This document shows, piece after piece, positions 174 to 17,998 of a stretch of 18,623 bases of DNA. Position 1 is the stretch's first letter; the number at the start of each line of letters is the position of its first letter. This DNA comes from an uncultured Erysipelotrichaceae bacterium (lineage in GTDB: Bacteria > Bacillota_I > Bacilli_A > RF39 > UBA660): assembly GCA_902768065.1 (NCBI GenBank), contig CACXJP010000046.1, positions 1 to 18,623 of the forward strand, read 5' to 3'. The notes beneath the pieces were generated by a model. It did no database searches and had not been told where the DNA came from. It saw only the letters and a list, made by a program, of their open reading frames with translations. The position numbers were made by a program, and so were the translations under genes.

Positions 174-300
174 TATGACAATTTGGACGCTAAGGTTCTA
201 ATTCTTTAAGGCAAGGAAGAATTATTGCATGCTGCGGGATATCCCTTTTAATAGGATGAAGGGGATATCCTTTTTTTATTCTAAAGAAGGAGGTTCAATT
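150..300 (+). promoter_or_regulatory. Conserved structured leader with terminator, before ORF6N copy 1
   Basis: This stretch is nearly identical to 3008-3163, the leader of ORF6N copy 2. It carries CTTGCC (159-164), then GGACGCTAAGG, then the inverted pair TAATTCTT/AAGAATTA. The loop of that hairpin contains GGCAAG, complementary to the upstream CTTGCC, so a pseudoknot is possible. It ends in a 12-bp hairpin (GGATATCCCCTT-like arms around 238-269) followed by a T run: an intrinsic terminator just before the AAGGAGG of the gene. This is the layout of an attenuator or riboswitch-like leader. I cannot assign it to a known RNA family. Confidence 0.55.
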
Positions 301-1174
301 ATGAATGAAACAGCAGAAACAAAAGATATTGAAAAGAGAATTTATACTATTAGAGGAGTAGAAGTAATGTTTGATTTCGATTTAGCAAAAATATATGATG
401 TTGAAACGAAAAGAATTAATGAATCTGCTAAGCGTAATCAAATAAAATTCCCCGAGAGGTTTAGTTGGGTACTTACAGATGATGAATCAAATAATTTTTT
501 GTCGCAAATTGCGACCAAAAAGTAGAGACTCGTGGTGGTCGTTATAAAAATCCAAGGGTATTTACTGAATAAGGTGTAGCAATGCTATCTACTATTCTAA
601 GTTCTAAAAAAGCAATAGTGGCAAGCATTTCTATCATCGACGCTTTTGTTCATATGAGACACTATTTAAGTTTTTCTAATGATGTTTTACTAAATAAGGT
701 AATGTTATTAGAAGAAAAGGTTGATGATAATACAAAAAAGATAAATGAATTATTTGATAAATTTGAACCTAAATTATTTTTAAAAGATAAAATAATATAT
801 ATAAAGGAGAATTATTTGATTCTCATATAATTCTTTTGGATATATTTGATAATGCTAAGGAAAAAATAATAATAATTGATAATTATGCTGGTAAAGAACT
901 ATTAAAGAGTTTAAAAGACATTAAAAAAAATATAATTATCATTTCATCTAATGTTGATAATACATTGAAAGAAAAGTATGAAAGACAATATACTAATGTT
1001 AAATTTATTGCTAACAATACTTATCATGATAGATTCATTTTGATTGATAAAAATAGACTATATTACTCTGGGGCATCCTTTAAGGACCTCGGTAAGAAAT
1101 GCTTTGATATACATGAAATAGATGATGAACAAACAATTAGAGAGTTTGTCAATAATTTACCAGACAATATATAG
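301..1174 (+). pseudogene. ORF6N-domain / PLD-like protein, copy 1 (frameshifted)
   Basis: ATG 301 follows AAGGAGG. The first 74 residues form an ORF6N domain (IRGVEVMFDFDLAKIY, then VETKRINESAKRN and FPERFSW). ORF6N domains are found in phage anti-repressor-like and DNA-binding proteins. The frame breaks near 523 and continues in another frame, where the normally conserved TEQGVAML reads TE-stop-GVAML (TAA at about 570). The frame 582-830 holds the rest of the domain (AFVHMRHY) and a coiled linker. A second frameshift near 810 leads to 836-1174, which carries IIIIDNYAGKELL, YHDRFILID and GASFKDLGKK. These are hallmarks of the PLD-like C-terminal domain that often follows ORF6N in Firmicutes. 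All parts are present but out of frame, so it is probably inactive. An 8-bp hairpin (ATTATGGC/GCCATAAT) lies just downstream. Confidence 0.8.
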
Positions 1175-1230
1175 TTTTTAATTATGGCAAAATCGCCATA
1201 ATAAGAAGATTATATTGTTAAAAATAAAAA

Positions 1231-1512
1231 AAGACTTAGTACTAATACGCAAACAACCTAGATGTTTTAATAATTAGGAAATATTCCTGATACGCAAACA
1301 AGGTTAGAGCACTTAGAATTGACACTGATACCACCCACGTTGAATGCGTGTCAGTACTTAGCCGCAAAACGTAAAAAAATAAGGAAAACGATTTCTAAAA
1401 AATGCCTAAAAAAGCAAGTTTTTGTATAAAAATAGCATAAAATAATTTATTAAATATTTAACCATGTCCTGGGAAAATATGTCTCCCAGGGCCAGTGTCT
1501 ATGCTAAAAGAT
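1231..1512 (+). repeat. Type B leader element, copy 1
   Basis: It aligns with 5769-6037 across its length. Shared words include TAATACGCAAA, AGGAAATATTCCT, AAGGTTAGAGCACTTAG, GACACTGA and, near the 3' end, TTAACCAT followed by AATATGT. It begins with a hairpin closed by AACC/GGTT around AGGAAATATTCCT. It then has a GACAC/GTGTC stem and ends with CCTGGGA/TCCCAGG (1468-1474 and 1484-1490). A direct repeat (ATACGCAAACAA) flanks the first hairpin. It stands in front of a good RBS and a broken gene remnant. It may be a leader, a mobile repeat or a recombination site; the function is unknown. Confidence 0.6.
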
Positions 1513-3034: not shown

Positions 3035-3163
3035 TATGACAATTTGGGACGCTAAGGTTCTAATTCTTTAAGGCAAGGAAGAATTATTGCACGCTGCGGG
3101 TTATCCCTTTTAATGGGGTTAAAGGAATATCCTTTTTTTGCTCTAAAAGAAGGAGGTTTAATT
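3008..3163 (+). promoter_or_regulatory. Conserved structured leader with terminator, before ORF6N copy 2
   Basis: Second copy of the element at 150-300. CTTGCC, GGGACGCTAAGG, TAATTCTT...AAGAATTA and the GGCAAG loop word are all kept. The terminator arms differ in sequence but still pair (GGTTATCCCTTT against AAAGGAATATCC, two mismatches) and are followed by seven T. The element ends at the AAGGAGG of the gene. Conservation of the leader is at least as high as that of the coding region. Confidence 0.55.
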
Positions 3164-3886
3164 ATGAATGAAATAGCAGAAACAAAAAGTATAGAAAACA
3201 AAATTTATAATATTAGGGGAGTGGAGGTGATGTTAGATTCGGATTTATCAGAACAATACAAATGTGCTTATGGTACTAAATCAATTAATTTAGCTGTTAA
3301 AAGGAATAGGGAGAGATTTCCAAGTGATTTTTATTTTCAGCTGAACGAAGAAGAATTTAATCAAATTTGCGGTTTCAATTTAAAACTTCAAAATAATAAA
3401 ATTAGAAGTTTACCATATGTATTTACTGAGTAAGGAGTGGCAATGCTTGCTACAGTAATAAGAACAGATGTAGCAGCTAAAGTAAGTATTGATATTATGA
3501 GAGCGTTTGTTAGAATGAGGCATTATATTAAATATAATGATCAACTGTTACCGCATAAATATTTGCTTTTAGAAGAAAAGGTAGATAATAACACAATTAT
3601 TAGAAATATTAAACCTATCAAGAGAAGAAGTAATAATTATAGATAATTATATGGGAAAGGTATTGCTAGATGAGTTAAGAACTATTAATAAAAAGATAAT
3701 TATAGTTTCTGCTAATATAAATAACACTTTAAAAAGCAAATATTCTAAACAATTTAATAATGTTACCTTTATAAATAATGATTCATATCATGATAGATTT
3801 ATAATTATAGATAGAAAAAGAGTTTTCACTGTGGAGCTTCATTTAAAGATTTAGGTAAAAAAAGTTTTGCAATAAATGAAATATAA
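3164..3886 (+). pseudogene. ORF6N-domain / PLD-like protein, copy 2 (decayed)
   Basis: ATG 3164 follows AGGAGG. The ORF6N domain reads IRGVEVMLDSDLSEQY, then AVKRNRERFPSDFYFQL. It stops at TAA 3431-3433, exactly where the family has Gln in TEQGVAML. The same frame resumes at once (GVAMLATVIRTD, RAFVRMRHY) up to about 3600. Then the linker is deleted and the frame shifts: the PLD-like part is read in another frame (VIIIDNYMGKVLLDEL, YHDRFIIID) and shifts again near 3827 to GASFKDLGKK, ending at 3886. It has one in-frame stop, one deletion and at least two frameshifts, so it is non-functional unless recoded. The downstream flank is shared with copy 3 (9034-9230). Confidence 0.8.
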
Positions 3887-3929: not shown

Positions 3930-4125
3930 ATTGTAGTATAGATAATCAATAATATTTATGATAAAATTTATATGTAAAACATTATAGTAATAAATATTTA
4001 ATAATAGTAACAAATAAGATATTTTTTTATCCTAGAACTAGACATGTTCTAGAAGTTTAAGAACATGTTCTATTGACCTAGTACAGGCCTAGTCAATATG
4101 TTCTTCGCCCCAGGACAGGGCACGT
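3930..4125 (+). repeat. Type A leader element, copy 1 (with upstream AT-rich flank)
   Basis: It is homologous to 9185-9405 and, from about 4029, to 7034-7165. Two hairpins are visible. The first is CTAGAAC/GTTCTAG (4032-4038, 4046-4052). The second is a long bulged hairpin, 4059-4105, in which AAGAACAT pairs with ATGTTCTT, ATTGA with TCAAT and CTAG with CTAG. The 5' flank shares ATGATAAAATTTA and ATGTAAAAC with the 9.2-kb copy. The 3' end passes into CACGTTGAATG, a word of the B elements, so this copy looks like an A-B hybrid. Confidence 0.65.
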
Positions 4126-4333
4126 TGAATGTGTATGCGCTCTAAAACTTAGATAGGCATCGATATATAAGGAAAAATCAACTGTTCAATGTATAGTTAA
4201 AAATATGATATATAAAGTAAATTTTTATATTATTGAATAAAAAAATATACTAAGGATGTTTGAGGGGAATATGTTTCCGCATACCATATTGATGGTATGG
4301 GTTGTATAATTAAAATGTAAGGAGAAATAGATT
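4119..4333 (+). repeat. 3' part of a B-like leader in front of the Nudix gene
   Basis: CACGTTGAATGTGT matches B copy 1 (CACGTTGAATGCGT), and GGGAATATGTTTCC resembles the 3' end of B copies 1 and 2. It carries an 8-bp hairpin, CATACCAT/ATGGTATG (4280-4287, 4292-4299). After this come TATAAT (about 4305) and the RBS AAGGAG before ATG 4334. Confidence 0.45.
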
Positions 4334-4945
4334 ATGAAAGAATTATTGTTAAATATATTAAATGAATATTTAAAAATCTTTCCAAAGGAGATAGAAAGAC
4401 AACAAGAATTAATAAAATTTTTAAATAATCATAAAGAAGAACAAATAACAGATTGGAATAACTTTGATGGTCATGTTGTTGCTGGTGGTTTTGTCTATGC
4501 AAAAGATGAGCAAAAGTTTTTAGTATTACACCATAAAGATTTAAATATATTTTTATACCCGGGTGGTCATATTGATAAAGATGATAGAAATCCATTAGAT
4601 GCTTCTATAAGAGAAATAAATGAAGAAACGGGATTAAAAAATATAATTGAATTTACAATATCAAACAATGAATTAGTTCCAATTGATATTGATACACATT
4701 TAATTGACTATAATAGGCGCTTAGATTTACCTGAACACTACCATTTTGAGTTTAGGTATTTGTATGTTATTGATAAAATTGAGAATATAAACGTTGATTC
4801 AAATGAGTCATCAGAATATAGATGGATCAGTGTAGAAGAATTGAAGCAAGATGAAAATTTTGGTAAAATTGCTGATAAATTTGATTTATTAAATTTAAAA
4901 AATATCAGAAAAAAGGGCTTAGTTCTATTGAAAAAGAGTATTTAA
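4334..4945 (+). CDS. Nudix hydrolase
   Basis: Cleaves a nucleoside-diphosphate-linked substrate; the exact substrate cannot be told. The Nudix box spans residues about 77-101: GGHIDKDDRNPLDAS followed by REINEETGL, the REUxEExGU core with both catalytic Glu. There is a two-residue expansion in the first half, and the usual first Glu is not at its standard position. The N-terminal 45 residues are helical, and FLYPGGHI matches cytosolic Firmicutes Nudix proteins. ATG 4334 is preceded by AAGGAG. It sits alone behind an A/B leader. The C-terminus may be altered by a frameshift near 4905-4915: another frame continues with coding-like sequence to TAG 4993-4995. The core domain is intact, so activity is likely. 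Confidence 0.9.
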   Translation: MKELLLNILNEYLKIFPKEIERQQELIKFLNNHKEEQITDWNNFDGHVVAGGFVYAKDEQKFLVLHHKDLNIFLYPGGHIDKDDRNPLDASIREINEETGLKNIIEFTISNNELVPIDIDTHLIDYNRRLDLPEHYHFEFRYLYVIDKIENINVDSNESSEYRWISVEELKQDENFGKIADKFDLLNLKNIRKKGLVLLKKSI

Positions 4946-5019
4946 ATTCTATTAATAAAATAAATCAAATTGTGGAAAGTTTAGATAAAAAATAGAACTA
5001 TACATAATAAACATACAAC

Positions 5020-5095
5020 TATAATGAATTGTTATTATGAATTAGTCAGCCATACCAAACATATAAAAAGTAACTATTCATAATTAACAAACATG
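5020..5095 (+). other. Intergenic stretch after the Nudix gene
   Basis: It holds an inverted repeat CATAATAA...TTATTATG around 5001-5040 but no T run and no coding signal beyond the possible Nudix tail that ends at 4995. Confidence 0.3.
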
Positions 5096-5136
5096 GCATT
5101 GTGAGAGTGTCTGTATATTAGAAAGAAGGTAAAATA
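5091..5136 (+). repeat. 3' module of a type A leader before the HD gene
   Basis: GGCATTGTGAGAGTGTCTG, then TATATTAGA and an AGAAGG RBS, aligns with 7134-7172 (GGCATTGCGAGAGCGTCTA...) before the HAD gene and with 9368-9410 before the GyrI-like gene. The homology runs to the start codon of three unrelated genes. The 5' hairpins of type A are missing here. Confidence 0.55.
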
Positions 5137-5766
5137 ATGGATAAAAAAATAAAAGATATAATGTCATTTTATGCATTATGTAGCAAATTAAAAGATACAA
5201 TAAGAAAAGGCCCACTTACATGGAATGCAAATAGAAAAAGAATAGAAAGTGTTGCAGAACATATTTATGGTGTTCAAATGTTAGCAATTTCTATCTATTA
5301 TCAATTTGGATATAAACTAGATTTAAATAAAGTAATCTACATGCTAGCTATTCATGAATTAGAAGAAATAGAAATTGGAGATTTAGCATTCTATGAAACA
5401 ACTAAAGAAGATAAATTAGAAAAAGGAAAGAATGCTACAGATTTAATTCTTAAAGACTTAATTGGAAAGGAAGAAATATCTAAATTATTGGATGAGTACA
5501 ACGAAAGAAAAACTGATGAAGCAATATTTGCATATCATTGTGATAAATTAGAATGTGATGTTCAAATGAAATTATACGATCAAGAAGGATGTTTTGATTT
5601 AAATAATCAACCTAATAATTCAATTATTGATTTACCTAGTGTTAGGAAAGTACTAGATAGTGAAAGTAGTATTTCAAATGCATGGATTGAATTTGATAGA
5701 AGTAAATTCGAAGACGATCCTGTATTTATTGAAATCATAAATTGGTTAAAAAATAACAACATATAG
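5137..5766 (+). CDS. HD-domain phosphohydrolase (YfbR/HDDC2-like)
   Basis: A metal-dependent phosphohydrolase, 209 residues, probably acting on nucleotides like the 5'-deoxynucleotidases of this fold. SVAEH (H42) is the first metal-binding His. The second motif is HELEEIEIGD (H73, E74, D82): Glu replaces the Asp of the classical HD pair, a variant seen in a Firmicutes subfamily. HCDKLECD (D136) gives the last metal-binding Asp. WNANRKRIESVAEH resembles the substrate-side loop of YfbR. ATG 5137 has AGAAGG upstream. The preceding leader is the A 3' module, and a B leader starts directly after the stop. A single-gene unit is the likely transcription unit. Fold confidence is high; substrate is not known. 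Confidence 0.85.
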   Translation: MDKKIKDIMSFYALCSKLKDTIRKGPLTWNANRKRIESVAEHIYGVQMLAISIYYQFGYKLDLNKVIYMLAIHELEEIEIGDLAFYETTKEDKLEKGKNATDLILKDLIGKEEISKLLDEYNERKTDEAIFAYHCDKLECDVQMKLYDQEGCFDLNNQPNNSIIDLPSVRKVLDSESSISNAWIEFDRSKFEDDPVFIEIINWLKNNNI

Positions 5767-5768
5767 AA

Positions 5769-6037
5769 ATGGCTTAGCACTAATACGCAAATAACCATGG
5801 TAGTTTCATATCTAGGAAATATTCCTAATAATGAAACAAGGTTAGAGCACTTAGCACTGACACTGAAACAACCCATGTGGAGTGCATATTGGTACTTGAG
5901 AGAAAAAACGTTGAAAAATAAAGTATCTGTAGTGAACATAAATTAGTAAAAAAGTAAATATATTTTAAAAAAATAATATATTAAATTAACCATTTCCTAG
6001 GAGAATATGTTTCCCAGTTCCAGGTTGATGATTTTAA
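5769..6037 (+). repeat. Type B leader element, copy 2
   Basis: It begins three bases after the HD gene stop and runs to the APH gene. It includes a multi-part hairpin at 5793-5843: AACC/GGTT at the base, GTTTCAT/ATGAAAC in the middle and AGGAAATATTCCT at the tip. B copy 1 keeps the base and the tip, while the middle differs in sequence. The 3' part has CCTAGGAGAATATGTTTCCC, the counterpart of CCTGGGAAAATATGTCTCCC in copy 1. Confidence 0.6.
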
Positions 6038-6136
6038 AGTAATGCAAATTCATTATTTAACAAAATAGTAAACAATTTAGATTTAGGAAACATAACTGAA
6101 GGCCCTATCCAAGTTACAGGTGGCTTAACACATAGA

Positions 6137-7033
6137 ATGTTTAGAATTTTTACTGATAAAGGTAGATATATTATTAAATTATTAAATCCAAATATTATGA
6201 AGAGACCAACTTCGATAAATAATTTTATTAAAGCAGAAAAATATGAAGAATTATTTAAAGAAAACAATATTAAAGCAGTTTATTCTCTAGAATTTAATAA
6301 TAAAAAGATGCAAGAAATTGATGGACAATATTTTTATGTATATGAATGGTATGATGGAAAATCTTTAAAAAATGAAGAAATAACTGAATATCATTGCAGA
6401 CAAATGGGAAAAACATTAGCTGAAATTCATAATATTGATCTTGGAAAAAGCGATTACAGTGAAAATGAAAAGAATATAGATTTTAAATACTATATAAATT
6501 TGGCTAAAGAAAAAGAATCTTCAATTTATGAGTTAATATATGATAAATTGGATATATTAAATGACAGTTTAAAAAAAGGTAACAATTCAATCAAAAATTT
6601 ACCTAATTTTTATTCTTTATGTCATAATGATATGGATCCTAAAAATGTAATGTGGTTAGATAATGATTATAAATTAATAGATTTGGAATGTTTAGGATAT
6701 TATAATCCATACTTGGAATTATATGAATTAGCATTATGTTGGTCAGGATATGAAAAGTGTAATATTAATTTTGATTTATTTAAAGTATTCTTTGAATCTT
6801 ATTTTGATAATTCTAGTCTAGATAAAAATATTGATTGGGAAGGTATTTATTATGCAAATAATAGAAGACTTGAATGGTTAGAATTTAATATTAGAAGATC
6901 TTTAATGATTGATTGTAACACTAAAGAGGAACAAAAAATAGGAATAAACGAGGTAAAAGAAACTATTGAGCATGTTATCTATTATGACAAAGCAAAGGAT
7001 GAAATATTGAAGAATATTAGCGATTTAATATGA
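6137..7033 (+). CDS. APH-family phosphotransferase (kinase fold), damaged 5' end
   Basis: Aminoglycoside phosphotransferase / choline kinase fold, which moves the ATP gamma-phosphate to a small hydroxyl compound. From ATG 6137: a Lys (K14 in YIIKLLNPNIM) for ATP binding, the catalytic loop CHNDMDPKN (H163, D165, N170), and LIDLE (D182) for Mg2+, followed by YYNPYLELYELAL typical of this Firmicutes group. Coding similarity starts further upstream: the same frame is open from 6038 and reads SLFNKIVNNLDLGNITEGP and VTGGLTHRM, matching the family N-terminus with its nucleotide-binding GG. No ATG, GTG or TTG lies in that frame. ATG 6042 is one base out of frame. Either a frameshift destroyed the start, or translation begins at 6137 and lacks about 30 residues. 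Function may be lost. The substrate cannot be predicted. Confidence 0.8.
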   Translation: MFRIFTDKGRYIIKLLNPNIMKRPTSINNFIKAEKYEELFKENNIKAVYSLEFNNKKMQEIDGQYFYVYEWYDGKSLKNEEITEYHCRQMGKTLAEIHNIDLGKSDYSENEKNIDFKYYINLAKEKESSIYELIYDKLDILNDSLKKGNNSIKNLPNFYSLCHNDMDPKNVMWLDNDYKLIDLECLGYYNPYLELYELALCWSGYEKCNINFDLFKVFFESYFDNSSLDKNIDWEGIYYANNRRLEWLEFNIRRSLMIDCNTKEEQKIGINEVKETIEHVIYYDKAKDEILKNISDLI

Positions 7034-7172
7034 TATGTTCTTCACCCTAGAACTAGTATAGTTCTAGGGATTTGAGAATATGTTCTATTGACCTAATACA
7101 GGCCTAGAGCATATGTTCTTCGCACTATAACAGGGCATTGCGAGAGCGTCTATATATTAGAGAGGTGATAAA
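7034..7172 (+). repeat. Type A leader element, copy 2
   Basis: It starts at the APH stop codon and ends at the GAGAGGTGA RBS of the HAD gene. It has a perfect 9-bp hairpin, CCCTAGAAC/GTTCTAGGG (7045-7053, 7061-7069). In the second hairpin the left arm (TTGACCTA) is the copy 1 form and the right arm (CTAGAGCA) is the copy 3 form, so they pair poorly. TATGTTCTTC occurs at both ends, at about 7035 and 7112. No T run follows either stem, so these are not simple terminators. Confidence 0.7.
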
Positions 7173-7174
7173 AA

Positions 7175-7753
7175 ATGATTAAAAATATTATTTTTGATAT
7201 AGGTGGAGTAATATTAGATGATAGTTTAGAAAACATTTCTAAAATATATGGAAAAGATATGAGTGACATTTATAAGAAAATATATAGTGGTAATTTTAAA
7301 GAATGTATACTAGGCAATATTAACATGACAGAATATCTTAAGCAGTTTCAATATGATAAAGACTATAAATATATTAGGGAAATATTAGACCCTGCAAATC
7401 AAAAAATATATACTCCATTAATAAAAGAAAATTATGAATATATATGTAATTTAAAAAATAGAGGTTATCACTTATATATATTATCTAATTTAACTAAAGA
7501 AACATATGATTATTTAAATTCCATCATTAATATAAACAAGTATTTTGATGGAGCAATATTTTCATATGATGTTGGTCTTAGAAAGCAAGAAGCAGATATT
7601 TTTAAATTGATAATTGATAAATATGATTTAGACTTAAAAGAAACAATATTTTTTGATGATAAAGAAAAAATTGTTAATAATGCAAAATCCGTGGGATTAA
7701 ATGCCAAAGTATTTAAATCTATAAATGATGTTGAAAGTGAGTTGTATTCATAA
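7175..7753 (+). CDS. HAD-superfamily hydrolase (HAD-IA, YihX-like)
   Basis: A Mg2+-dependent phosphatase, 192 residues. Motif I is FDIGGVI with nucleophile D8; the +2 position is Gly instead of the usual Asp, common in the YihX-like and related HAD-IA groups. Motif II is LSN (S104), motif III is LRKQEADIF (K137; the usual Pro after Lys is Gln), and motif IV is FFDDKEKIVNNAKSVG (D161, D162). The helical cap lies between residues 17 and 90. ATG 7175 follows GAGAGGTGA. All motifs are intact, so it is probably an active sugar- or nucleotide-phosphate phosphatase. It is a single gene behind type A leader copy 2. Confidence 0.9.
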   Translation: MIKNIIFDIGGVILDDSLENISKIYGKDMSDIYKKIYSGNFKECILGNINMTEYLKQFQYDKDYKYIREILDPANQKIYTPLIKENYEYICNLKNRGYHLYILSNLTKETYDYLNSIININKYFDGAIFSYDVGLRKQEADIFKLIIDKYDLDLKETIFFDDKEKIVNNAKSVGLNAKVFKSINDVESELYS

Positions 7754-7844
7754 TAATATGTTCTTTATTGTAATAGAAAAAAGAATTTATAAACAATTTG
7801 AAAGAGAAAATAGATGAAAGACTATATTTATTATATGATAGTAA

Positions 7845-7935
7845 AAGACTAGCCATTTAATGACTTAGTACTGACACGGATACCACTCATTGCAAATCCA
7901 TCGCAGGTTTAGAAAGGAAAAACTAAAATGAATAT
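7845..7935 (+). repeat. Partial type B element (middle module)
   Basis: GACTTAGTACTGACACGGAT and ACCACTCATTGCAAAT align with the middle of B copy 1 (1305-1350: CACTTAGAATTGACACTGAT, ACCACCCACGTTGAAT). A GAAAGGA RBS-like stretch and ATG 7928 follow, but that frame stops after 13 residues. It is probably the relic of a lost cassette. The stretch 7754-7844 shows nothing recognisable. Confidence 0.4.
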
Positions 7936-8032
7936 CAGAAAAATAAAGAACAATGCATTAATGGATTGAAATTTTATCCAATGAAAGTGGTTTTTTAATA
8001 ATATAATATGTTAAAAATGATTAAAGGTGTTA

Positions 8033-8064
8033 AAATCAATGTTAGTCATTGCATTGATTTTTTT
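8033..8064 (+). terminator. Intrinsic terminator upstream of the lipoprotein gene
   Basis: AAATCAATG (8033-8041) pairs perfectly with CATTGATTT (8052-8060), and T residues follow. It closes off the cassette transcripts before the lipoprotein promoter, whose -35 lies within the hairpin's right arm. Confidence 0.75.
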
Positions 8065-8081
8065 GAGTTTTGTGGTATAAT
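8054..8081 (+). promoter_or_regulatory. Promoter of the lipoprotein gene
   Basis: TTGATT (8054-8059) and an extended -10, TGGTATAAT (TATAAT 8076-8081), are separated by 16 bases. It lies about 25 bases before the RBS. Confidence 0.7.
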
Positions 8082-8107
8082 AGTATACCGAAATGGGGGA
8101 TATTATT

Positions 8108-8959
8108 TTGAAATTAGATTTTGTGAATAGAGATGCTATTCGAAATATAATGAAAAAAGGGACTTTAGTATTAGCAACTGGTGCTATATTATGCAGTTTA
8201 CCTGGTTGTAGTAGAGAAGTTTCAACAAATGCAAATGTCAAATATGATGTTATTGATACTATGGATGAGGAACTTGTTGCTAATGGTATTCAACAAAGAT
8301 TAGATGTACCTGGTGAAAACTTTGATTTAGTAGTAGATTATCGTTGTGCTTTAGAAGAAAATGCTAAATGGACAGTTACATCAGATAAGGAAATGTATAT
8401 AGGTGTACATACTGATGGATTAGATGATAAAATGAAAGTATTTATTGATAATGTCCATATTGATACTACTATTAGAAGTGTTTATCCATCAGTTGACGGT
8501 ATTACTCAAGATACTATGGATGATAGAATTCATAATTCTCAAATGTTAGGTTTTCCTATATCTGATGATAATACTTATAGTACTGTTAATTGTGTAGAAG
8601 GACAAAATCAAACTTTTATGCAAGGCTCATTTTATGGTTTTAATGGATATTCTAGTGGTACAGTTTCTGAAGAAAGATATGTAGAATCAGATTATCTAGC
8701 AGCTGGAGTTTATGCTAATAAGATTAATTCTATTATAGATTTAATTATTCAAAAAGAAGATGGTACTACTACTTGTGTATCTGTTCCATCAACTATTGGT
8801 ATTTCTGTTTGGCCATATATTGAAAGAGTTAATACTGATGGTTCATCAATGTTTAGATATTATTATTATAATGAAAATGATGGAAAAGTGGAATATAAAG
8901 ACTACACTATGGATGAGTATGAACAACAAACTCATTCAAATAAGCAATATCATAAATAA
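8108..8959 (+). CDS. Putative lipoprotein of unknown function
   Basis: About 283 residues. The N-terminus has a lysine pair (MKKGTLVLATG) followed by a hydrophobic run and LPGC, a fit to a lipoprotein signal with Cys as the first mature residue. The mature part is acidic and beta-rich, with no membrane segment and no family I recognise. TTG 8108 is chosen because GGGGGA lies seven bases before it. ATG 8093 has no RBS, and ATG 8150 would give a textbook signal peptide but has only a weak RBS. Codons end in T as in the downstream core genes. It has its own promoter and terminator, so it is probably a resident gene between two cassette groups. Confidence 0.75.
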   Translation: MKLDFVNRDAIRNIMKKGTLVLATGAILCSLPGCSREVSTNANVKYDVIDTMDEELVANGIQQRLDVPGENFDLVVDYRCALEENAKWTVTSDKEMYIGVHTDGLDDKMKVFIDNVHIDTTIRSVYPSVDGITQDTMDDRIHNSQMLGFPISDDNTYSTVNCVEGQNQTFMQGSFYGFNGYSSGTVSEERYVESDYLAAGVYANKINSIIDLIIQKEDGTTTCVSVPSTIGISVWPYIERVNTDGSSMFRYYYYNENDGKVEYKDYTMDEYEQQTHSNKQYHK

Positions 8960-8979
8960 AAGGAGTTATACTCCTTTTT
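8958..8979 (+). terminator. Intrinsic terminator of the lipoprotein gene
   Basis: AAAAGGAG/CTCCTTTT, an 8-bp stem with a 5-base loop, runs into a T run and starts inside the stop codon. Confidence 0.85.
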
Positions 8980-9033
8980 CTTATGTTATAATTTGTTGAT
9001 GTTATTACGATAAAAGTAATAAGGGGTGTATAT

Positions 9034-9230
9034 ATGTTCGCAATAATACTAAAATCAAAAGTAGCTAATGAAGTAAGTATTAAAATAATGGATACATTTG
9101 TTGGAATGAGATAGTATATTAAAAATGTTTTGTAATCAATAATATAGAAAATGAAAAAAATAATAAATGAAGTTATTAAAAAATTGCATTATAGATAATT
9201 AATTATATATATGATAAAATTTAAATGTAA
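9034..9230 (+). pseudogene. ORF6N gene copy 3, short relic
   Basis: GGGGTG before ATG 9034 corresponds to the GGAGTGGCA context in copy 2. MFAIILKSKVANEVSIKIMDTFVGMR aligns with MLATVIRTDVAAKVSIDIMRAFVRMR of copy 2. A TAG (9112-9114) stands where copy 2 has His. The middle of the gene is deleted. The region around 9160-9230 then matches the flank after copy 2 (AATAAATGA, TATAGATAAT, ATGATAAAATTTA). Only the end of the ORF6N domain and the 3' flank are left. Confidence 0.65.
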
Positions 9231-9405
9231 AACTTTAGTAAGTTATATTTAATAATATCAAAAAATGTGATATGTTCTTCGATCTAGAAGTGGTCTAGAA
9301 CTTGGATAATAAGAACATATTCTATTGCTCTAGTATAGACCTAGAGCATATATTCTTTGCACCATTACAGGGTACTTAGGTAGTGCCTGTATATCAGAGA
9401 GGAGA
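9185..9405 (+). repeat. Type A leader element, copy 3
   Basis: The AT-rich flank is shared with copy 1. Hairpin 1 is TCTAGA/TCTAGA (9283-9288, 9294-9299). Hairpin 2 has a perfect stem TGCTCTAG/CTAGAGCA (9326-9333, 9341-9348) on a lower AAGAA/TTCTT stem. Where copy 1 has ATTGA/TCAAT, this copy has a different sequence that still pairs. The end, GGTACTTAGGTAGTGCC, forms a small hairpin, and GAGAGGAGA follows as the RBS. Confidence 0.65.
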
Positions 9406-9411
9406 TAAACT

Positions 9412-9762
9412 ATGGTTTTTAATGGTATAAGTAAAGTATTTTCTACAAAAGACAATGAACAGTATAAAACAATAGTTGCCTTTTGGGATGAAATGTCTCA
9501 ATTATATGGAATGGAAAACATTAGAGGGTTGGGATATAATTGGACAGAAGATTCAATTGAATATGTTATAGGTTTAAAAAATGGTGTTATAGATAATGCG
9601 AATTGTGATGTAGAATTACCTAATGATGGTTGGTCTATTGTAATAGGGGATACGAATAAACTTCCCTTAATATATAAAAAAATATATGAAGGTGGTCCAT
9701 TAAAATACGAAATTGAAATGTTTTTTGAAAATGATAAGTGTGAAATATGGTATTATAGATAA
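9412..9762 (+). CDS. GyrI-like / AraC effector-binding domain protein
   Basis: A stand-alone ligand-binding domain of 116 residues with no DNA-binding part. GISKVFSTKDNEQYKTIVAFWDE, GLGYNWTEDSIEYVIGL, PNDGWSIVIG and LKYEIEMFFEND follow the order of strands and helices in the GyrI-like (SOUL/AraC-binding) fold. That fold binds small hydrophobic or cationic compounds and sometimes modifies drug action. ATG 9412 follows GAGGAGA. The neighbours are a GNAT acetyltransferase downstream and an A leader upstream. The family call rests on motif memory and is moderately sure. The ligand is unknown. Confidence 0.65.
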   Translation: MVFNGISKVFSTKDNEQYKTIVAFWDEMSQLYGMENIRGLGYNWTEDSIEYVIGLKNGVIDNANCDVELPNDGWSIVIGDTNKLPLIYKKIYEGGPLKYEIEMFFENDKCEIWYYR

Positions 9763-9845
9763 GATTTATATTATCTATTTTATGAAGAACCAATTAATAA
9801 TCAATTTGATAGAAAATGAAATTATATAAAGTAAGGAGTGATAAA

Positions 9846-10301
9846 ATGAACGAAAATGTTGAGTTAGTTCCATATACAGATGATGATTATGATTTTGTGT
9901 ATGAAGTAAAGAAAAGTGCATATAAAAAATATGTTGAAGAATGCTGGGGTTCATGGGAGGAAGAAAATCAAAAAAATTATTTTGAAAAGTTTATATCAAC
10001 TGTAAAGGATAATGCTTATATAATTATGTATGGAGATAAAAAGATTGGTTTTTATAATGGAGAAATATTAGAAAATGGTAACTATGAAGTTGGAAATATT
10101 TGTATTATTCCTGAATACCAAGGTAAAGGTATAGGAAGTAAAATTTTAAAAGATATTTTGGAAGAAAATAAAGATAAAAATATAGAAATTCAATATTTTA
10201 AACAAAATCCAGTTGGGAAATTATATGATAGATTAGGTTTTGCATCCAATGGTGAAACTGAATTTCATTATAAAATGATCAAAGGAAAAACTAAAGAATA
10301 G
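9846..10301 (+). CDS. GNAT-family N-acetyltransferase
   Basis: A cytosolic enzyme of 151 residues that moves an acetyl group from acetyl-CoA to an unknown amine. The acetyl-CoA loop is IIPEYQGKGIGSKIL (QGKGIG, residues 92-97). Late motif B is KLYDRLGF, and the protein ends in a beta strand (TEFHYKMIK). ATG 9846 with AAGGAGTG upstream is preferred over ATG 9816, which has no RBS. It lies 83 bases after the GyrI-like gene with no terminator visible, so the two may be co-transcribed. No A or B leader precedes it. Confidence 0.9.
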   Translation: MNENVELVPYTDDDYDFVYEVKKSAYKKYVEECWGSWEEENQKNYFEKFISTVKDNAYIIMYGDKKIGFYNGEILENGNYEVGNICIIPEYQGKGIGSKILKDILEENKDKNIEIQYFKQNPVGKLYDRLGFASNGETEFHYKMIKGKTKE

Positions 10302-12243: not shown

Positions 12244-12260
12244 TATTTGTGGTGGTTATT

Positions 12261-12950
12261 ATGAAGAAAATTAATCGATATAAGGTATCTTTAGTTTTAA
12301 ATATTATTATTGTATTATTAACTGTTTTATCTACTATTTTTATGTTTACTGGTTTTAAATTTATGCATGGTGTTGAGCCTGTTTTAGAAAGTACTAAACT
12401 AGGAGCTTTTAAATATTTTACAGTTGATTCAAATGTTTTTGCTGGTATTATATCTTTATTATTTATATTTATTAATATTGGTATTTTAAAAGGAAAAAGT
12501 AAAAATATTTCTAAATCTTTGTATTTATTGAAACTTATGGCTACTTCTGGTGTTACTCTTACGTTTGCTGTTGTATTCTTATACTTAGGACATATAGCAC
12601 AAGGTGGAATTTATTCTTTATTATTAAATAGTAATTTATTTTTTCATTTAATTATTCCAATATTAAATATAGTTGATTTTGTTTTGTTTATTCAGTTTGA
12701 TGATGTTTTATATAAATATGCTTTTTATGGTTTAATACCTATGGGCTTGTATTCAATTTTTTATGCTACAAATGTTATCTTACACATTAATAATGGAATG
12801 GTTTCTCCTAAATATGACTGGTATTGGTTTGTTCAAAATGGAATATGGACTATGGTTTTTGTTATACCTATAATTGTTTCATTAAACTATATTATAAGTT
12901 TACTGCTAGTTTTATTTAATAAAAAGAAAAAGAAATTTATAGAGGGGTAA
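12261..12950 (+). CDS. Pr6Pr/AIG1-like integral membrane protein
   Basis: 229 residues with about six hydrophobic helices (starting near residues 10, 57, 85, 120, 155 and 195) and a lysine-rich C-terminus. KYFTVDSNVFAGI in the first loop, and NSNLFFHLIIPILNIVDFVLF later, match the pattern of the Pr6Pr/AIG1-like membrane family: a conserved FTxxSN and an FHxxxP His within a helix. Its function in bacteria is not established. A lipid-ester hydrolase role is known for the eukaryotic AIG1 relatives only. ATG 12261 follows GGTGG; the GTG at 12249 is less likely. It is 4 bases from the YfhO-like gene. Confidence 0.6.
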   Translation: MKKINRYKVSLVLNIIIVLLTVLSTIFMFTGFKFMHGVEPVLESTKLGAFKYFTVDSNVFAGIISLLFIFINIGILKGKSKNISKSLYLLKLMATSGVTLTFAVVFLYLGHIAQGGIYSLLLNSNLFFHLIIPILNIVDFVLFIQFDDVLYKYAFYGLIPMGLYSIFYATNVILHINNGMVSPKYDWYWFVQNGIWTMVFVIPIIVSLNYIISLLLVLFNKKKKKFIEG

Positions 12951-12954
12951 TAAT

Positions 12955-15327
12955 ATGAGTAAATTAAAGAATTTTATAAAAAACAGATATAAAGATATTA
13001 TTATAATTGGTTGTTTTATTATTACATATCTTATTATTTATATATATTTAACTAAAAATGGTACTTATATATTTGCATCTTCAAAGGACTTTGATGTTCA
13101 ACATTATTTATTACCTGAATATTTAAGAGAAATATTTATAAATACTCATAATTTGTTTCCCAAATTTTCTTTTAACTTAGCAGCAGGTACTAATATATAT
13201 AATTTAGCTTATTATGGTTTATATAATCCTATTATTTTAGTATCTTTTTTATTTCCTAAAATAAAAATGCTAAATTATATTATTTTTGCAATGGGGTGTA
13301 TTGTAGTTTTATCTACATCATTACTATATTTTTATTTTAGAAAGAATAATTACTCTTATTTAACTTCTTTTATATGTTCATTTATGTTTTTATGTTCTGG
13401 ACCTCTTATCTTTCATAGTCATAGGCATATTATGTTTATAGATTATTTTCCTTTTTTGATACTTGGTTTTTTTGGTACTGATATTTATATTAAAAATAAG
13501 AAAAGTTTATTATTAATTATTTCAATATTTTTAATGATTTTAACTAGTTATTTTTATAGTGTTGCTGGTTTAGTTGTTTTATTTATTTATGGTATATATA
13601 GGTATTTAAAAATACATAAAAAAATTAAATATAATAATTTTACTAAGTATATTGTTGGTTTAATATTGAGATATATTCCTGCAATCCTTACTGCTGCTTT
13701 TCTTCTTATACCCACTTCTTTTGCTTTATTAAATGGTAGGGGAGCAGGACCTGGATTTAATATTTTTAAAGAATTATTTTCTATAAAAAATAATTTGTTT
13801 TATCAATCTTATACTATGGGTTTAACTTTATTTAGTTTGTTTTCTATGATATATGTTCTATTTAAAGGTGATAGAGCTAATAGATTTTTATCTATAATAC
13901 TTTTAATATGTAGTTTTATTTCTTTTCCATCTTTCATTTTAAATGGTTTTTTATATGCTGATGGAAAATCTTTAATTCCTTTTATTCCTCTTGTTATTAT
14001 TTTAGTGGCAGAGGTATTTGAGAAAGTCATTTATAAGACAAAATTTAAATATATAGTTATGATCTATTTAATTATTTCATCTTTTACTATGTGTTTAATT
14101 GCTAATAATAATGATAAATTAATTCCTAAGAATTCTATTGATTTTAAGGAAGAAGAAATATATAGAAATAAAATAAATAATATTATTGATAATAATGATA
14201 TTTATAGAATAAAGAATGATTTAATTGCCAAAGATTATATAAATAGAATTACTAATATTAATGAATATAAGACAACTAGTTATTTATCATCCAATAATAA
14301 AATTTATAATGATGCTTATAAGTATTCTTTTGATAATCCTTTGCAATATAGAAATTCTATGATGTATTCTTCTTCTAATAATCTTTTGTTTGAAATGTAT
14401 ATGGGAGAAAAATATATATTTACGAAGAATAATTATAATAATATTTATCATAAAATTGATAGTTATAAAGATGTTAATATATATGAAAATGATTATGTTT
14501 TACCAATGGGTTATGCTACTAATAATTACATTAATAAGAATGATTTTAATAAATTAAAATATCCTGATACTATTTTAAACTCTTTAGGGGTTGTTGTTAG
14601 TGATAATAAAACTAATGTTGATATAAAGAAGGCTAAAGAAATTTATCTTAATTATCAAGTTATTGAGAAGAAAAACCTTACTTATGAAAAGAGTAGTGAT
14701 GGTTATAAAATTAAATCTAAATCAGATGGTTCTTTAAAACTAAAAACAGATGAAGAGTTTGACAATAAGCTTCTAATTATACAATTTGAATTAGATGATA
14801 AAGATAAGTGTATGTATAATGATTTAAGTATTCAGATTAATTCAATTATGAATGTTCTTACTTGTAAAAATTGGAAATATTATAATGATAATAGAGTATT
14901 TACTTATACTATAAGTGAAAATCCTGAACTTTTAGATATTATATTTGAAAAAGGTACTTATAATATTCATAATATTAAACTGTATACAATTGATTATGAT
15001 GATATTATTTCTTCTAATGATAATATTTATCCTATGATTATTGATAAGAATAAATCTAATAATGAAGTTATTACTGGGAATATTAGTGTTTTAAAAGACT
15101 CTTATTTTACTATTTCTATTCCTTATGATAAAGGTTTACTTGTAAAATTAGATAATAAGATGGTAGAATATGACTTAACAAATGGATCCTTTGTTGGTTT
15201 TCCTATAAAAGAAGGAGAACATATAATCGAAATAAGTTATATTCCTCGAGGATATAATTTAGGAATAATTATTAGTATAATTGGTTTACTTTCTTTTATT
15301 TCGGTCCTTATATATGAGAGAAGATGA
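12955..15327 (+). CDS. YfhO-like multi-pass membrane glycosyltransferase
   Basis: 790 residues of the GT-C-like YfhO family. In Bacillus, YfhO moves sugar from a lipid carrier to lipoteichoic acid on the outer face of the membrane. The N-terminal half has about twelve hydrophobic helices. The first extracytoplasmic loop carries DFDVQHYLLPEYLRE (acidic residue and Gln/His as in the family's D-x-x-x-Q motif) and SFNLAAGTNIYNLAYY. A large extracytoplasmic C-terminal domain (about residues 390-765) is rich in Asn, Asp and Tyr. A last helix (GIIISIIGLLSFISVLIY) ends in RR. Start ATG 12955 after GAGGGGTAA. It ends at TGA 15325-15327, two bases before the phosphatase start. Length is near the family norm. 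Confidence 0.8.
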   Translation: MSKLKNFIKNRYKDIIIIGCFIITYLIIYIYLTKNGTYIFASSKDFDVQHYLLPEYLREIFINTHNLFPKFSFNLAAGTNIYNLAYYGLYNPIILVSFLFPKIKMLNYIIFAMGCIVVLSTSLLYFYFRKNNYSYLTSFICSFMFLCSGPLIFHSHRHIMFIDYFPFLILGFFGTDIYIKNKKSLLLIISIFLMILTSYFYSVAGLVVLFIYGIYRYLKIHKKIKYNNFTKYIVGLILRYIPAILTAAFLLIPTSFALLNGRGAGPGFNIFKELFSIKNNLFYQSYTMGLTLFSLFSMIYVLFKGDRANRFLSIILLICSFISFPSFILNGFLYADGKSLIPFIPLVIILVAEVFEKVIYKTKFKYIVMIYLIISSFTMCLIANNNDKLIPKNSIDFKEEEIYRNKINNIIDNNDIYRIKNDLIAKDYINRITNINEYKTTSYLSSNNKIYNDAYKYSFDNPLQYRNSMMYSSSNNLLFEMYMGEKYIFTKNNYNNIYHKIDSYKDVNIYENDYVLPMGYATNNYINKNDFNKLKYPDTILNSLGVVVSDNKTNVDIKKAKEIYLNYQVIEKKNLTYEKSSDGYKIKSKSDGSLKLKTDEEFDNKLLIIQFELDDKDKCMYNDLSIQINSIMNVLTCKNWKYYNDNRVFTYTISENPELLDIIFEKGTYNIHNIKLYTIDYDDIISSNDNIYPMIIDKNKSNNEVITGNISVLKDSYFTISIPYDKGLLVKLDNKMVEYDLTNGSFVGFPIKEGEHIIEISYIPRGYNLGIIISIIGLLSFISVLIYERR

Positions 15328-15328
15328 T

Positions 15329-16108
15329 ATGATGAAGATTAAAAATATTAAATTAAAAGAAAAACAAAATATAAGAGATTTTTCTTATATTATAAATAAA
15401 GATAATTATACAATATTAAATAATTCTTTTCTTAGATCAAATAATATTAATGTATTTGATAGGGAAGATATTGAGTTTCTTAAAGATAATTATCATCTAA
15501 AAACTATAATTGATCTTAGAAATAAAGATGAAGTATTACTTAATCCATGTAATATTGATAATATTAAATATTATAATATTCCATTATTTGAAAGTAGAAA
15601 GAGAAAATCTATTTCTAGTAGTTCAAATAAACAAAAAGTTAGTAAAGTTCCTAATATATATGAAGTTTATTTAGATATGATTAGGACAAAAACTGCTAAA
15701 AAGCAATTAAAAAAGATTCTTAAAATACTTATGAATCCAAAGAATAATTGTATCTTGTTTCATTGTACTTTTGGTAAAGATAGGACTGGTTTAATTTCTT
15801 TATTATTATTATCTTTGCTTGATGTTGATATTGATATTATTAAAAAGGATTATTTATATTCGAATAATTATCTAGAATCAATTGCTAATGATAAGTATAA
15901 TTATTATTTAGAAAAGAGTAGGAATAAAGAGTATGCTCTTCAAATGAGGGATATTTTTCTAGTAAAAGAAGAATATATTGATTATATTATTGACTATATG
16001 ATTAAAGAGAAGGGTTCTGTTATTAATTTTATAAAAAAAGAACTTGGTGTAAGTGAAAGAAGAATTATTAAATTTAAAAATAGTGTTTTATATAAAATAG
16101 ATAAGTAA
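15329..16108 (+). CDS. Tyrosine/dual-specificity phosphatase family protein
   Basis: 259 residues. The Cys-based phosphatase loop is HCTFGKDRTG (nucleophile C146, Arg at 152), the HCxxGKDRTG form of bacterial Y_phosphatase3/DSP proteins, whose members act on phosphoproteins or phosphoinositides. IIDLRNKDE (about 60-68) is the conserved N-terminal motif with D62. The N-terminal NIRDFSY also fits the family. A serine-rich insert (SISSSS) lies near residue 95. ATG 15329 follows GAGAGAAG. It is directly downstream of the YfhO-like gene and is the last gene of the operon. No signal peptide, so cytoplasmic. Confidence 0.88.
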   Translation: MMKIKNIKLKEKQNIRDFSYIINKDNYTILNNSFLRSNNINVFDREDIEFLKDNYHLKTIIDLRNKDEVLLNPCNIDNIKYYNIPLFESRKRKSISSSSNKQKVSKVPNIYEVYLDMIRTKTAKKQLKKILKILMNPKNNCILFHCTFGKDRTGLISLLLLSLLDVDIDIIKKDYLYSNNYLESIANDKYNYYLEKSRNKEYALQMRDIFLVKEEYIDYIIDYMIKEKGSVINFIKKELGVSERRIIKFKNSVLYKIDK

Positions 16109-16130
16109 ATTTTGCTTATCTATTTTATTT
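16094..16130 (+). terminator. Operon terminator
   Basis: AAAATAGATAAG (16094-16105) pairs perfectly with CTTATCTATTTT (16115-16126), 12 bp, enclosing the stop codon of the phosphatase gene in the loop. It is T-rich on the 3' side. Confidence 0.85.
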
Positions 16131-16135
16131 AAGTC

Positions 16136-16174
16136 TTGAAAAAAACTTGAAAATATATTAAAATTTAATATAGT
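16136..16174 (+). promoter_or_regulatory. Promoter of the Pro-rich membrane protein gene
   Basis: Two overlapping possibilities: TTGAAA 16136-16141 with TAAAAT 16159-16164 (17 bases), or TTGAAA 16147-16152 with TATAGT 16169-16174 (16 bases). The RBS AGGTGA at about 16180 follows. Confidence 0.6.
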
Positions 16175-16191
16175 AGGATAGGTGAAAAGAA

Positions 16192-17364: not shown

Positions 17365-17377
17365 TGGAGGTAATTAT

Positions 17378-17905: not shown

Positions 17906-17933
17906 TAGAATAACAATGTTATTCTATTTTTTT
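17904..17933 (+). terminator. Intrinsic terminator
   Basis: AATAGAATAA (17904-17913) pairs with TTATTCTATT (17919-17928), 10 bp, followed by a T run. Confidence 0.9.
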
Positions 17934-17946
17934 ATTACATATATAA

Positions 17947-17975
17947 TTGTTTTTTATATCTAAATATGTTATTAT
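17947..17975 (+). promoter_or_regulatory. Promoter of the small gene at 17999
   Basis: TTGTTT (17947-17952) and TATTAT (17970-17975) with 17 bases between, about 10 bases before the RBS. Confidence 0.5.
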
Positions 17976-17998
17976 ATTAAGCCATAGAGGTGATGATG

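What the first reader, a model, noticed from the sequence alone, without database searches (positions are those of the whole stretch)
3930..9405. A shared leader family (type A) joined to unrelated genes: a cassette-like array
Three full type A elements (about 4029-4125, 7034-7172, 9270-9405) and a 3' module (5091-5136) lie at gene junctions. The homology runs to the RBS of at least three non-homologous genes (HD, HAD, GyrI-like), while the coding sequences share nothing. Elements start almost at the stop codon of the gene before (APH stop 7033, element from 7034). This is what a swap of coding sequences behind a common leader, or a cassette system with structured junction sites, would look like. 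No recombinase is in the window. Alternatives are a common regulatory RNA that spread by duplication, or a MITE-like repeat.
Basis: partly seen in the sequence, partly recalled or inferred. Interest (0 to 1): 0.78.

Follow-up and report, generated by a model that had tools for sequence, protein, structure and literature searches.

The report
Integron-like gene cassettes at rlmD
The repeats are the seams of a row of swappable, mostly single-gene cassettes that pile up at the end of a ribosome-modifying gene (rlmD) in uncultured gut and rumen bacteria, each cassette bringing a spare copy of that gene's tail; it looks like a gene-capture system that works like an integron but is not one.

Summary
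The repeats are real, but the "leader" is two half-sites joined at a fixed point (CA|). The left half (type A hairpins, or other unrelated types) is the 3' end of the upstream gene's cassette. The right half begins the next cassette and encodes, in frame, the C-terminus of the 23S rRNA methyltransferase RlmD (e.g. H|CESITVLERR*), its stop beside the RBS. In 16 of 102 junctions the left half is the rlmD gene itself. Identical cassettes recur behind unrelated left halves and the reverse; identity switches at CA| (40 and 77 pairs). A 351-bp cassette is 97.7-99.4% identical in six species whose RlmD proteins share 39-62%. The window shares its chromosomal right flank with G005, where rlmD heads the array. 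So these are site-specifically inserted cassettes accumulating at rlmD, as in integrons or SCC. No integron integrase passes its cut-off in 18 genomes; no dedicated recombinase was found near arrays; Xer/dif does not fit. A rumA-type serine integrase acting in trans is my best guess; the enzyme is unidentified. Eight paper searches listed no description of such arrays.

The parts
229..1174 (+). ORF6N-domain gene remnant (interrupted frame): body of the first cassette visible in the window
   Evidence: PF10543, E 8e-19; frame in pieces; intact relatives
1229..1337 (+). Left half-site, type B, ending ..CCACCCA|
   Evidence: D3; 81-87% identity to stretches of L048, L051, L053, L054, L061, L166
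1336..1374 (+). Right half-site, RlmD tail HVECVSVLSRKT*
3113..3880 (+). Second ORF6N gene remnant, of a cassette that ends in left half A1
   Evidence: (65-87% identity up to 3596 with ORF6N stretches of at least ten loci)
4019..4122 (+). Left half-site, type A (copy A1), end of an ORF6N cassette
   Evidence: (many local matches end exactly at 4122)
4121..4156 (+). Right half-site, RlmD tail HVECVCALKLR*
4334..4945 (+). NUDIX cassette gene
   Evidence: PF00293, E 1.5e-13
5097..5132 (+). Right half-site, RlmD tail HCESVCILERR*, with RBS for the HD gene
5137..5766 (+). HD-domain cassette gene; unit 5099-5875 recurs in L046, L052, L054 at 93.7-96.3% identity
5767..5875 (+). Left half-site, type B, end of the HD cassette
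5874..5921 (+). Right half-site, RlmD tail HVECILVLERKNVEK*, followed by a noncoding leader
   Evidence: (5874-6048 is 91% identical to the stretch at the rlmD end in L050)
6137..7033 (+). Phosphotransferase/choline-kinase-like cassette gene; 6047-7056 is 96.4% identical to L052
7034..7137 (+). Left half-site, type A (copy A2), end of the phosphotransferase-like cassette
7136..7168 (+). Right half-site, RlmD tail HCESVYILER*, with RBS for the HAD gene
7175..7753 (+). HAD-hydrolase cassette gene
   Evidence: PF00702, E 2.5e-12
7859..7889 (+). Left half-site, type B-like (..GACACGGATACCACTCA|)
7888..7926 (+). Right half-site, RlmD tail HCKSIAGLERKN*
7888..8005 (+). Start and end of a GNAT cassette lacking its middle part
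   Evidence: 7888-7950 and 7943-8005 match L056 9474-9412 and 9055-8993 at 90% and 92%; the L056 gene is GNAT
9025..9237 (+). ORF6N cassette remnant (gene fragment 9034-9126 and 3' flank 9182-9237)
   Evidence: (D8, D12)
9265..9374 (+). Left half-site, type A (copy A3)
9373..9408 (+). Right half-site, decayed RlmD tail YLGSACISERR*, with RBS for ORF 9412
9412..10301 (+). Last cassette genes: 116-aa ORF without family match and a GNAT acetyltransferase (9816-10301)
12249..18307 (+). Chromosomal right flank, partly shared in order with L052 (G005), where rlmD heads the array
   Evidence: (12261-15288 at 69%, 16623-17388 at 73%)

Best explanation
This is the downstream part of an array of mobile gene cassettes inserted one behind the other by site-specific recombination at the 3' end of rlmD. 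A cassette is [RlmD-tail half-site + RBS] - gene - [left half-site]. Shown by sequence: exchange occurs at a fixed CA|; cassettes start with an in-frame RlmD tail; where the head of an array is in view it is rlmD; the same units occur in different orders in different species and have moved between them. Inferred: a cassette circle carries left|right as its attP; insertion at rlmD swaps the rlmD tail for the cassette's own near-equivalent tail, so RlmD stays intact and the entry site is regenerated for the next cassette; the newest cassette lies next to rlmD and is read through from it (the RlmD stop overlaps or adjoins the RBS). Also inferred: the enzyme acts in trans. My first choice (about 0.4) is a large serine integrase of the rumA-targeting kind.
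For: (junction list). (rlmD 3' ends run straight into cassettes). (91 distinct right halves, RlmD-tail coding). (identity switches within 2-3 bp of CA| in 40 same-right and 77 same-left pairs). (unit 97.7-99.4% identical where host RlmD is 39-62% identical). (CA at 94 of 102 junctions; same orientation in 23 of 23 loci with two or more junctions; a stop in the first 9 codons in 3 of 86 distal right halves against 54 and 48 in the other frames; right-half kinds C and V both occur behind all four main left types; 12 of 16 rlmD-headed loci show further junctions downstream, the other 4 none in the stretch held). (reversed-sequence control: 0 hits >=10 bits in 860,030 bases, against 105 and 49 forward). 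(20 further loci: 45 junctions, rlmD in 12 loci, 32 ORFs >60% identical to earlier cassettes). (window and G005 share the chromosomal right flank; rlmD heads the G005 array). (L155 has rlmD|F0 where L060 has rlmD|F8|F0: one clean extra unit). (the head gene is RlmD, TIGR00479 over cut-off). (published ICEs insert in rumA with single serine integrases and 2-21 bp direct repeats).
Against: rlmD itself is not in the window; its place is inferred from synteny. Home-made recombinase models found none in 61 array or rlmD loci except one host-type Xer gene, nor in 20 more. Serine recombinases (PF00239) were not found in 4 of 16 array genomes, and 20 of the 46 found elsewhere were checked and carry no RlmD-tail half-site of 14 bits or more (best 11.0 bits). 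The genomes are drafts, so absence is weak. Not all units are simple: 18 of 76 closed units exceed 1600 bp (up to 6456), and in 25 of 76 the longest ORF starts neither at the junction nor 30-50 nt behind it, so some hold several genes or have lost junctions. The pairs were chosen for low identity on one side and share junctions, so the drop is partly by construction; its place is not. A few bases left of the junction (-30, -27, -24, -7: 0.78-0.95) are also shared across left types. Right halves were collected with a model trained on right halves, so their likeness is partly by selection; reading frame, rlmD and left halves are not.
Confidence: 0.9

Rival explanations
1. A structured regulatory RNA leader (the type A element as one unit) that spread by duplication.
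For: Type A left halves fold better than shuffles (mean z -2.14, 53% below -2, n=34; control inside genes -0.36, n=98); elements lie before RBSs.
Against: The element splits at CA| and its halves assort separately; other left types fold less well (mean z -1.1 and -0.85); RNAalifold shows 0 of 6 pairs with two-sided change and a covariation term of +0.25; Rfam has no match at gathering score.
Confidence: 0.04
2. Homologous recombination between dispersed repeats shuffles genes, without a site-specific recombinase.
For: Left halves of one type are often 75-90% alike over about 100 bp.
Against: Near-identical cassettes stand behind unrelated left halves (rlmD body, types A, B, C), with identity near background over most of the 28 bases left of the CA (40 pairs).
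Confidence: 0.04
3. A degenerate integron: a cluster of attC sites lacking integrase.
For: Mostly single-gene cassettes in one orientation and variable 3' sites; such clusters are reported from Firmicutes, rarely.
Against: 0 of 18 genomes have TIGR02249 over its cut-off (weaker matches to Xer-type genes in all 18 and in all 14 controls); the base left of the exchange is A in 99 of 102 junctions and G in 1, not the G of G|TT (recalled); the conserved side is protein-coding rlmD tail, not an R/L-box hairpin.
Confidence: 0.05
4. Host XerC/XerD act on the junctions, as in dif-module elements.
For: The 30 best of 66 PF00589 matches in 16 array genomes form two clades with about one member each per genome; by eye rlmD's TTTCCTAGGACATATCATTG recalls the left arm of dif.
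Against: A dif-like site (TTCCTATAATTGATATTATGTTAACT or close, up to 3 mismatches to a recalled pattern; backward control hits in 4 of 16) lies within about 4 kb of a tyrosine recombinase gene in 13 of 16 genomes; by eye the junctions lack its right arm, and left types A-D its left arm too.
Confidence: 0.1
5. The recombinase is encoded by a frequent cassette, the ORF6N protein with a phospholipase-D-like nuclease domain.
For: It is the second largest single cassette family (7 of 105 units; 13 proteins in 10 loci); 15 of 30 ORF6N matches in 18 genomes lie on array contigs; the C-terminal part (pLDDT blocks 72-91) matches NucT, Nuc and Zucchini (TM to target 0.53-0.55) and keeps H-x-R-x4-D (motif recalled).
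Against: On array contigs, at the array, in only 10 of 18 genomes and in none of G012, G014, G149 at all; half of the ORF6N genes lie elsewhere; the best matches by E-value are the DNA-binding TrmBL2; PHROGs calls it anti-repressor; no PLD-family site-specific recombinase is known to me.
Confidence: 0.07
6. An IS110-type enzyme guided by a structured RNA (bridge RNA) moves the cassettes.
For: A 2-bp core and structured noncoding ends would fit (recalled).
Against: Among the 25 of 57 Pfam families shown for 50 cassette proteins there is none of this kind.
Confidence: 0.06

Closest known systems
Integrons (IntI/attI/attC)
   Same: Tandem, mostly single-gene cassettes in one orientation, a fixed entry point, variable 3' sites, mobility between species.
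   Different: No IntI found; the entry site is the 3' end of rlmD; the invariant half-site codes for protein and travels at the 5' end of each cassette; exchange at CA|, not G|TT (recalled).
SCC / Enterococcus cassette chromosome at rlmH (PMC6222049, passages read)
   Same: Insertion in the 3' region of an RNA methyltransferase gene; several att sites in a row occur; the SCC att core TATCATAA and the rlmD site share TATCAT, in rlmD on Tyr-His codons.
   Different: The ECC example is 32 kb and these elements encode ccrAB; here most closed units are under 1.6 kb and no recombinase was found in the arrays examined; the target gene differs; left halves do not keep TATCA.
ICEs in rumA with a single serine integrase (PMC4701971, passages read)
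   Same: Same target gene (rumA and rlmD name one family, TIGR00479), exchange of its 3' part, short direct repeats.
   Different: ICEs are conjugative and encode the integrase, whose gene contains attR; there the exchange changes RumA's C-terminus and frame; here the tail is kept and units are mostly one gene.
Xer-dependent dif modules (pdif; recalled)
   Same: Small gene modules bounded by recombination sites without their own recombinase.
   Different: Junctions do not resemble the dif found in these genomes; units carry an rlmD tail.

Membership tests
Integron | IntI integrase in the genome | tested here: not met
   TIGR02249: 0 of 18 genomes over cut-off; drafts, so not final
Integron | attC exchange point G|TT in an R box (recalled) | tested here: not met
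   Base before the exchange: A 99, G 1, T 1, C 1 of 102
Integron | attC R/L-box secondary structure by a covariance model | not tested
   No attC model at hand; type A halves fold better than shuffles, other types less so
Integron | Tandem one-gene cassettes in one orientation | tested here: met
   23 of 23 loci single orientation; 58 of 76 closed units <=1600 bp; 72 of 76 with longest ORF on the array strand
SCC/ECC | Insertion at the 3' end of rlmH | tested here: not met
   The target is rlmD, TIGR00479
SCC/ECC | ccr serine recombinase in or near the element | tested here: not met
   No serine recombinase in 81 loci or in the window, by home-made models
SCC/ECC | Target gene keeps a coding 3' end after insertion | tested here: met
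   Right halves code the RlmD tail
rumA ICE | Insertion in rumA/rlmD with tail exchange | tested here: met
rumA ICE | Serine integrase gene containing attR | tested here: inconclusive
   20 of 46 serine recombinase places inspected, no half-site of 14 bits or more
rumA ICE | Conjugation or mobilisation module | tested here: inconclusive
   None among the 25 of 57 Pfam families shown for 50 of 62 cassette representatives
Xer/dif modules | dif-like XerC/XerD arms at both ends | tested here: not met
   Genome dif-like sites compared by eye with the junctions

The most novel reading that the evidence does not exclude
A gene-capture platform of its own kind: a recombinase not yet recognised as such, acting in trans (an unrecognised serine enzyme, an RNA-guided enzyme, or the ORF6N-PLD cassette protein), captures single genes behind rlmD. 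It tolerates very different left half-sites because it recognises structure or guides rather than sequence, and uses the coding tail of an rRNA methyltransferase as a self-regenerating entry site and built-in expression signal across a genus of gut Bacilli and beyond.
Probability: 0.3. Interest if true: 0.93.

Novelty: new variant of a known kind. Interest (0 to 1): 0.84.

Why it matters
Complete integrons are almost unknown in Firmicutes (one case named in the passages I read of PMC9024848). Here, in uncultured gut and rumen Bacilli, is an integron-like economy of single genes: 17 of 39 genomes of one genus have two or more right half-sites. The design is neat: each cassette carries the tail of its own entry gene, so insertion should cost the host little, renew the entry site and supply a ribosome-binding site. 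It gives a way to predict mobile genes (NUDIX, HD, HAD, GNAT, HIT and many unknowns) and points to an enzyme worth finding.

Tried and rejected
Leader-RNA reading: Rfam gave nothing at gathering score; RNAalifold on 19 type A junctions gave 6 pairs and no covariation. Viral carriers: the type A core and two right-half patterns have 0 exact matches in viral contigs; rlmD and ORF6N alignments found no relatives there. Three unannotated fecal 'Bacteriophage sp.' records with a match to the 68-aa protein or to ORF6N hold no right half-site (best 4.6 bits); by eye at least one is bacterial DNA, and two carry tyrosine recombinase genes. Plasmids have no match to the 68-aa protein. Nine serine recombinases with the motif STEDQAREGF and their context sit beside a small ORF, not beside right half-sites. 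A dyad scan around the junction showed no common centre of symmetry.

Limits: draft genomes; array contigs often break in the array. The junctions at two contig ends of G013 (L047 12935 and L046 2) look like the same cassette and both are among the 105 units. In one search one window junction was entered at a wrong place (1358 for 1337); it is left out of the 102 (which hold six window junctions) and corrected. Junctions with fewer than 60 bases to the left (e.g. L054 at 55, behind an rlmD end; L046 at 2) are not in the 102 typed by left half. The class and family searches draw samples and use stricter filters; the 150 best candidates per genome were scored. Cassette families: 50 of 62 representatives were scanned.


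Full report
OBSERVATION. The type A repeats are present as described (D2, D10; 4 core matches against 0.29 expected). The window encodes, in order, an ORF6N remnant, a minus-strand gene, a second ORF6N remnant, NUDIX, HD, a phosphotransferase-like protein, HAD, a lipoprotein-like ORF (by eye), a third ORF6N fragment, an unassigned 116-aa ORF and GNAT, then chromosomal genes. No whole genome is held for it.

RELATIVES. An exact pattern for the type A core hit 15 loci in genome contigs and none in viral contigs. The record titles name Bacilli, Bacillales, Erysipelotrichaceae, Tenericutes or Firmicutes MAGs; five name goat gut sites, the RUG ones are rumen genomes (recalled), the rest give no source. 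Printing the flanks showed the key fact: the same gene tail plus hairpin is followed, after ..ACAGGGCA, by different sequences in different genomes, and the same downstream gene is preceded by different hairpins. I fetched 19 array regions, 40 further regions of which 39 hold rlmD and later 20 more.

ANATOMY. A model of the stretch after the junction gave 105 units and 102 junctions with enough sequence to type the left half. The left 32 nt fall into type A (34), a mixed group with types B, D and E (26), type C (21), the rlmD gene body (16) and five singletons. The right half reads as the end of RlmD: H-C-E-S-I-T-V-L-E-R-R-stop and variants. RlmD is identified by TIGR00479 over its cut-off. 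In the 86 junctions not attached to rlmD the first nine codons hold a stop in 3 cases in the RlmD frame and in 54 and 48 in the other two frames; 68 of 86 stay open for nine codons and then stop within codons 10-13; 45.6% of pairwise differences fall on third codon positions against 34.0% and 20.4% on first and second. All seven window junctions keep the frame open for at least 10 codons. The model gave no hit of 10 bits or more in 860,030 reversed bases against 105 and 49 forward.

EXCHANGE POINT. For 40 pairs of junctions with the same cassette on the right but different left flanks, identity is mostly 0.12-0.6 left of base -2, with four shared positions (-30, -27, -24, -7 at 0.78-0.95), and 0.82-1.0 from base -2 onward except at +3 (0.47) and +6 (0.68). 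For 77 pairs with the same left flank and different cassettes, identity is 0.68-1.0 up to base -1, 0.81 at the first base behind the junction, 0.64 at the second, and lower behind, apart from positions that the RlmD tail holds constant. Pairs were picked for under 50% identity on one side and are not independent; what they show is where the change lies. The last two bases are CA in 94 of 102. Both right-half kinds (C and V) occur behind all four main left types. Window junctions 5098 and 5875 are among these pairs.

MOBILITY. A 351-bp cassette (68-aa protein without Pfam match) was compared in nine copies: six (L050, L059, L060, L063, L155, L169) are 97.7-99.4% identical over 15 pairs while RlmD of the same genomes is 39-62% identical in protein; the other three (L046, L047, L057) are 82-92% identical to these and to one another. 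The window's HD cassette (777 bp) is 96.3%, 93.7% and 95.0% identical to L052, L054 and L046 (L046 covered to 90%). In L155 the 68-aa cassette directly follows rlmD; in L060 one further cassette stands between them. Of 76 units closed on both sides the median length is 799.5 bp, 58 are at most 1600 bp, 43 have the longest ORF starting 30-50 nt after the junction, 8 have it open from the junction, and 72 have it on the array strand. Cassette families include NUDIX, GNAT, HD, HAD, HIT, Ham1-like, nitroreductase, histidine phosphatase, S51 peptidase and GyrI-like (50 of 62 representatives scanned, 25 of 57 families shown). PADLOC lists 130 model matches among the same 50, led by a candidate (PDC) model with 4 members; I did not follow these.

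PLACE. In 18 array genomes the right-half model has 91 matches, 89 on contigs identified as array or rlmD contigs; the other two are in G009:C13 and, weak, in G007:C5. 12 of 16 loci with rlmD as left half show further junctions in the stretch held, 4 do not. In the second set, 12 of 20 loci contain rlmD and 45 junctions score 14 bits or more, 37 of them with CA; these loci were chosen by the right-half model, so only rlmD, left halves and cassette genes are independent checks. In G005 (L052) rlmD, the array and then genes of the window's right flank (12261-15288, 16623-17388) follow each other, so the window's array very probably starts at rlmD beyond its left end. Half-sites (rlmD's own tail included) occur in 12 of 395 genomes drawn from the class (E<=1e-3), in 37 of 386 from the family, 12 of them with two or more (E<=1e-4), and in 23 of 39 of the genus, 17 with two or more (E<=1e-4).

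ENZYME. Models built from the recombinases fetched found no serine or tyrosine recombinase in 61 loci except one host-type gene in L061, in 20 more, or in the window. PF00239 has 46 matches in 12 of 16 genomes and none in G001, G010, G012 and G149. PF00589 has 66 matches, in all 16; the 30 best fall in two clades with about one per genome each, the other 36 were not compared. A dif-like site lies near a tyrosine recombinase gene in 13 of 16 genomes and by eye does not match the junctions. TIGR02249 is over its cut-off in 0 of 18. Nine serine recombinases in eight genomes share the motif STEDQAREGF; the seven compared with one another are 33.5-69.9% identical; they sit elsewhere. The known precedent is the set of single serine integrases that put streptococcal ICEs into rumA (PMC4701971, passages); SCC/ECC at rlmH is the closest design (PMC6222049, passages). 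I therefore rank a serine integrase in trans first, at about 0.4, and leave the class open.

ORF6N. ORF6N cassettes end in type A halves A1 and A3 of the window. The C-terminal part is predicted with fair confidence (mean pLDDT of the whole 59.3, C-terminal blocks 72-91). Foldseek's best matches by E-value are TrmBL2 with low TM-scores, followed by PLD-type nucleases NucT, Zucchini and Nuc at TM 0.53-0.55 to the target. It is a candidate helper, nothing more.

LITERATURE. Eight searches were answered; their listings (8 to 15 papers shown each) show no paper on cassette arrays at rlmD. Passages read: PMC4701971, PMC9024848, PMC6222049, PMC9668308. The library holds no preprints and few subscription journals.

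VERDICT. A real and, as far as these searches show, undescribed cassette array system: works like an integron, inserted like SCC, member of neither by the tests made.

Noticed in passing
window 182-285 and 3044-3147: The leader before the ORF6N genes, with a terminator-like hairpin and T run, is more conserved between copies (82-92% in L054, L064, L186, L155) than whole matches over leader and gene (67-73%); it may be a regulator of its own.
   Followed up: partly
window 5876-6048 and 4240-4316: Right halves of the HVEC kind are followed by a noncoding stretch with a hairpin near GGAATATGTTTCC; the first lies at the rlmD end in L050 (91%), the second resembles a stretch behind rlmD in L183 (81%).
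   Followed up: partly
window 1706-2740, minus strand: Gene with an internal 300-nt duplication (82% identity), no Pfam or NCBIfam match.
   Followed up: no
L060 9897-10100: 68-aa cassette protein without Pfam family; 411 related clusters, many of the 120 listed on short metagenome contigs.
   Followed up: partly
L050 4663-6519 (minus) and L248: NuoF/hydrogenase-type subunit (PF01512) in a unit that ends with a rare left type (..ATAACTCATCA|), 99.8% identical in protein between two genomes: units can hold several genes.
   Followed up: partly
13 of 16 array genomes: A dif-like site lies a few kb from a Xer-type gene, an arrangement known from single-recombinase systems (recalled), though most of these genomes have two Xer-type genes.
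   Followed up: no
cassette proteins, alignment A4: 130 PADLOC models match among 50 cassette proteins; whether any cassette is a defence gene was not examined.
   Followed up: no
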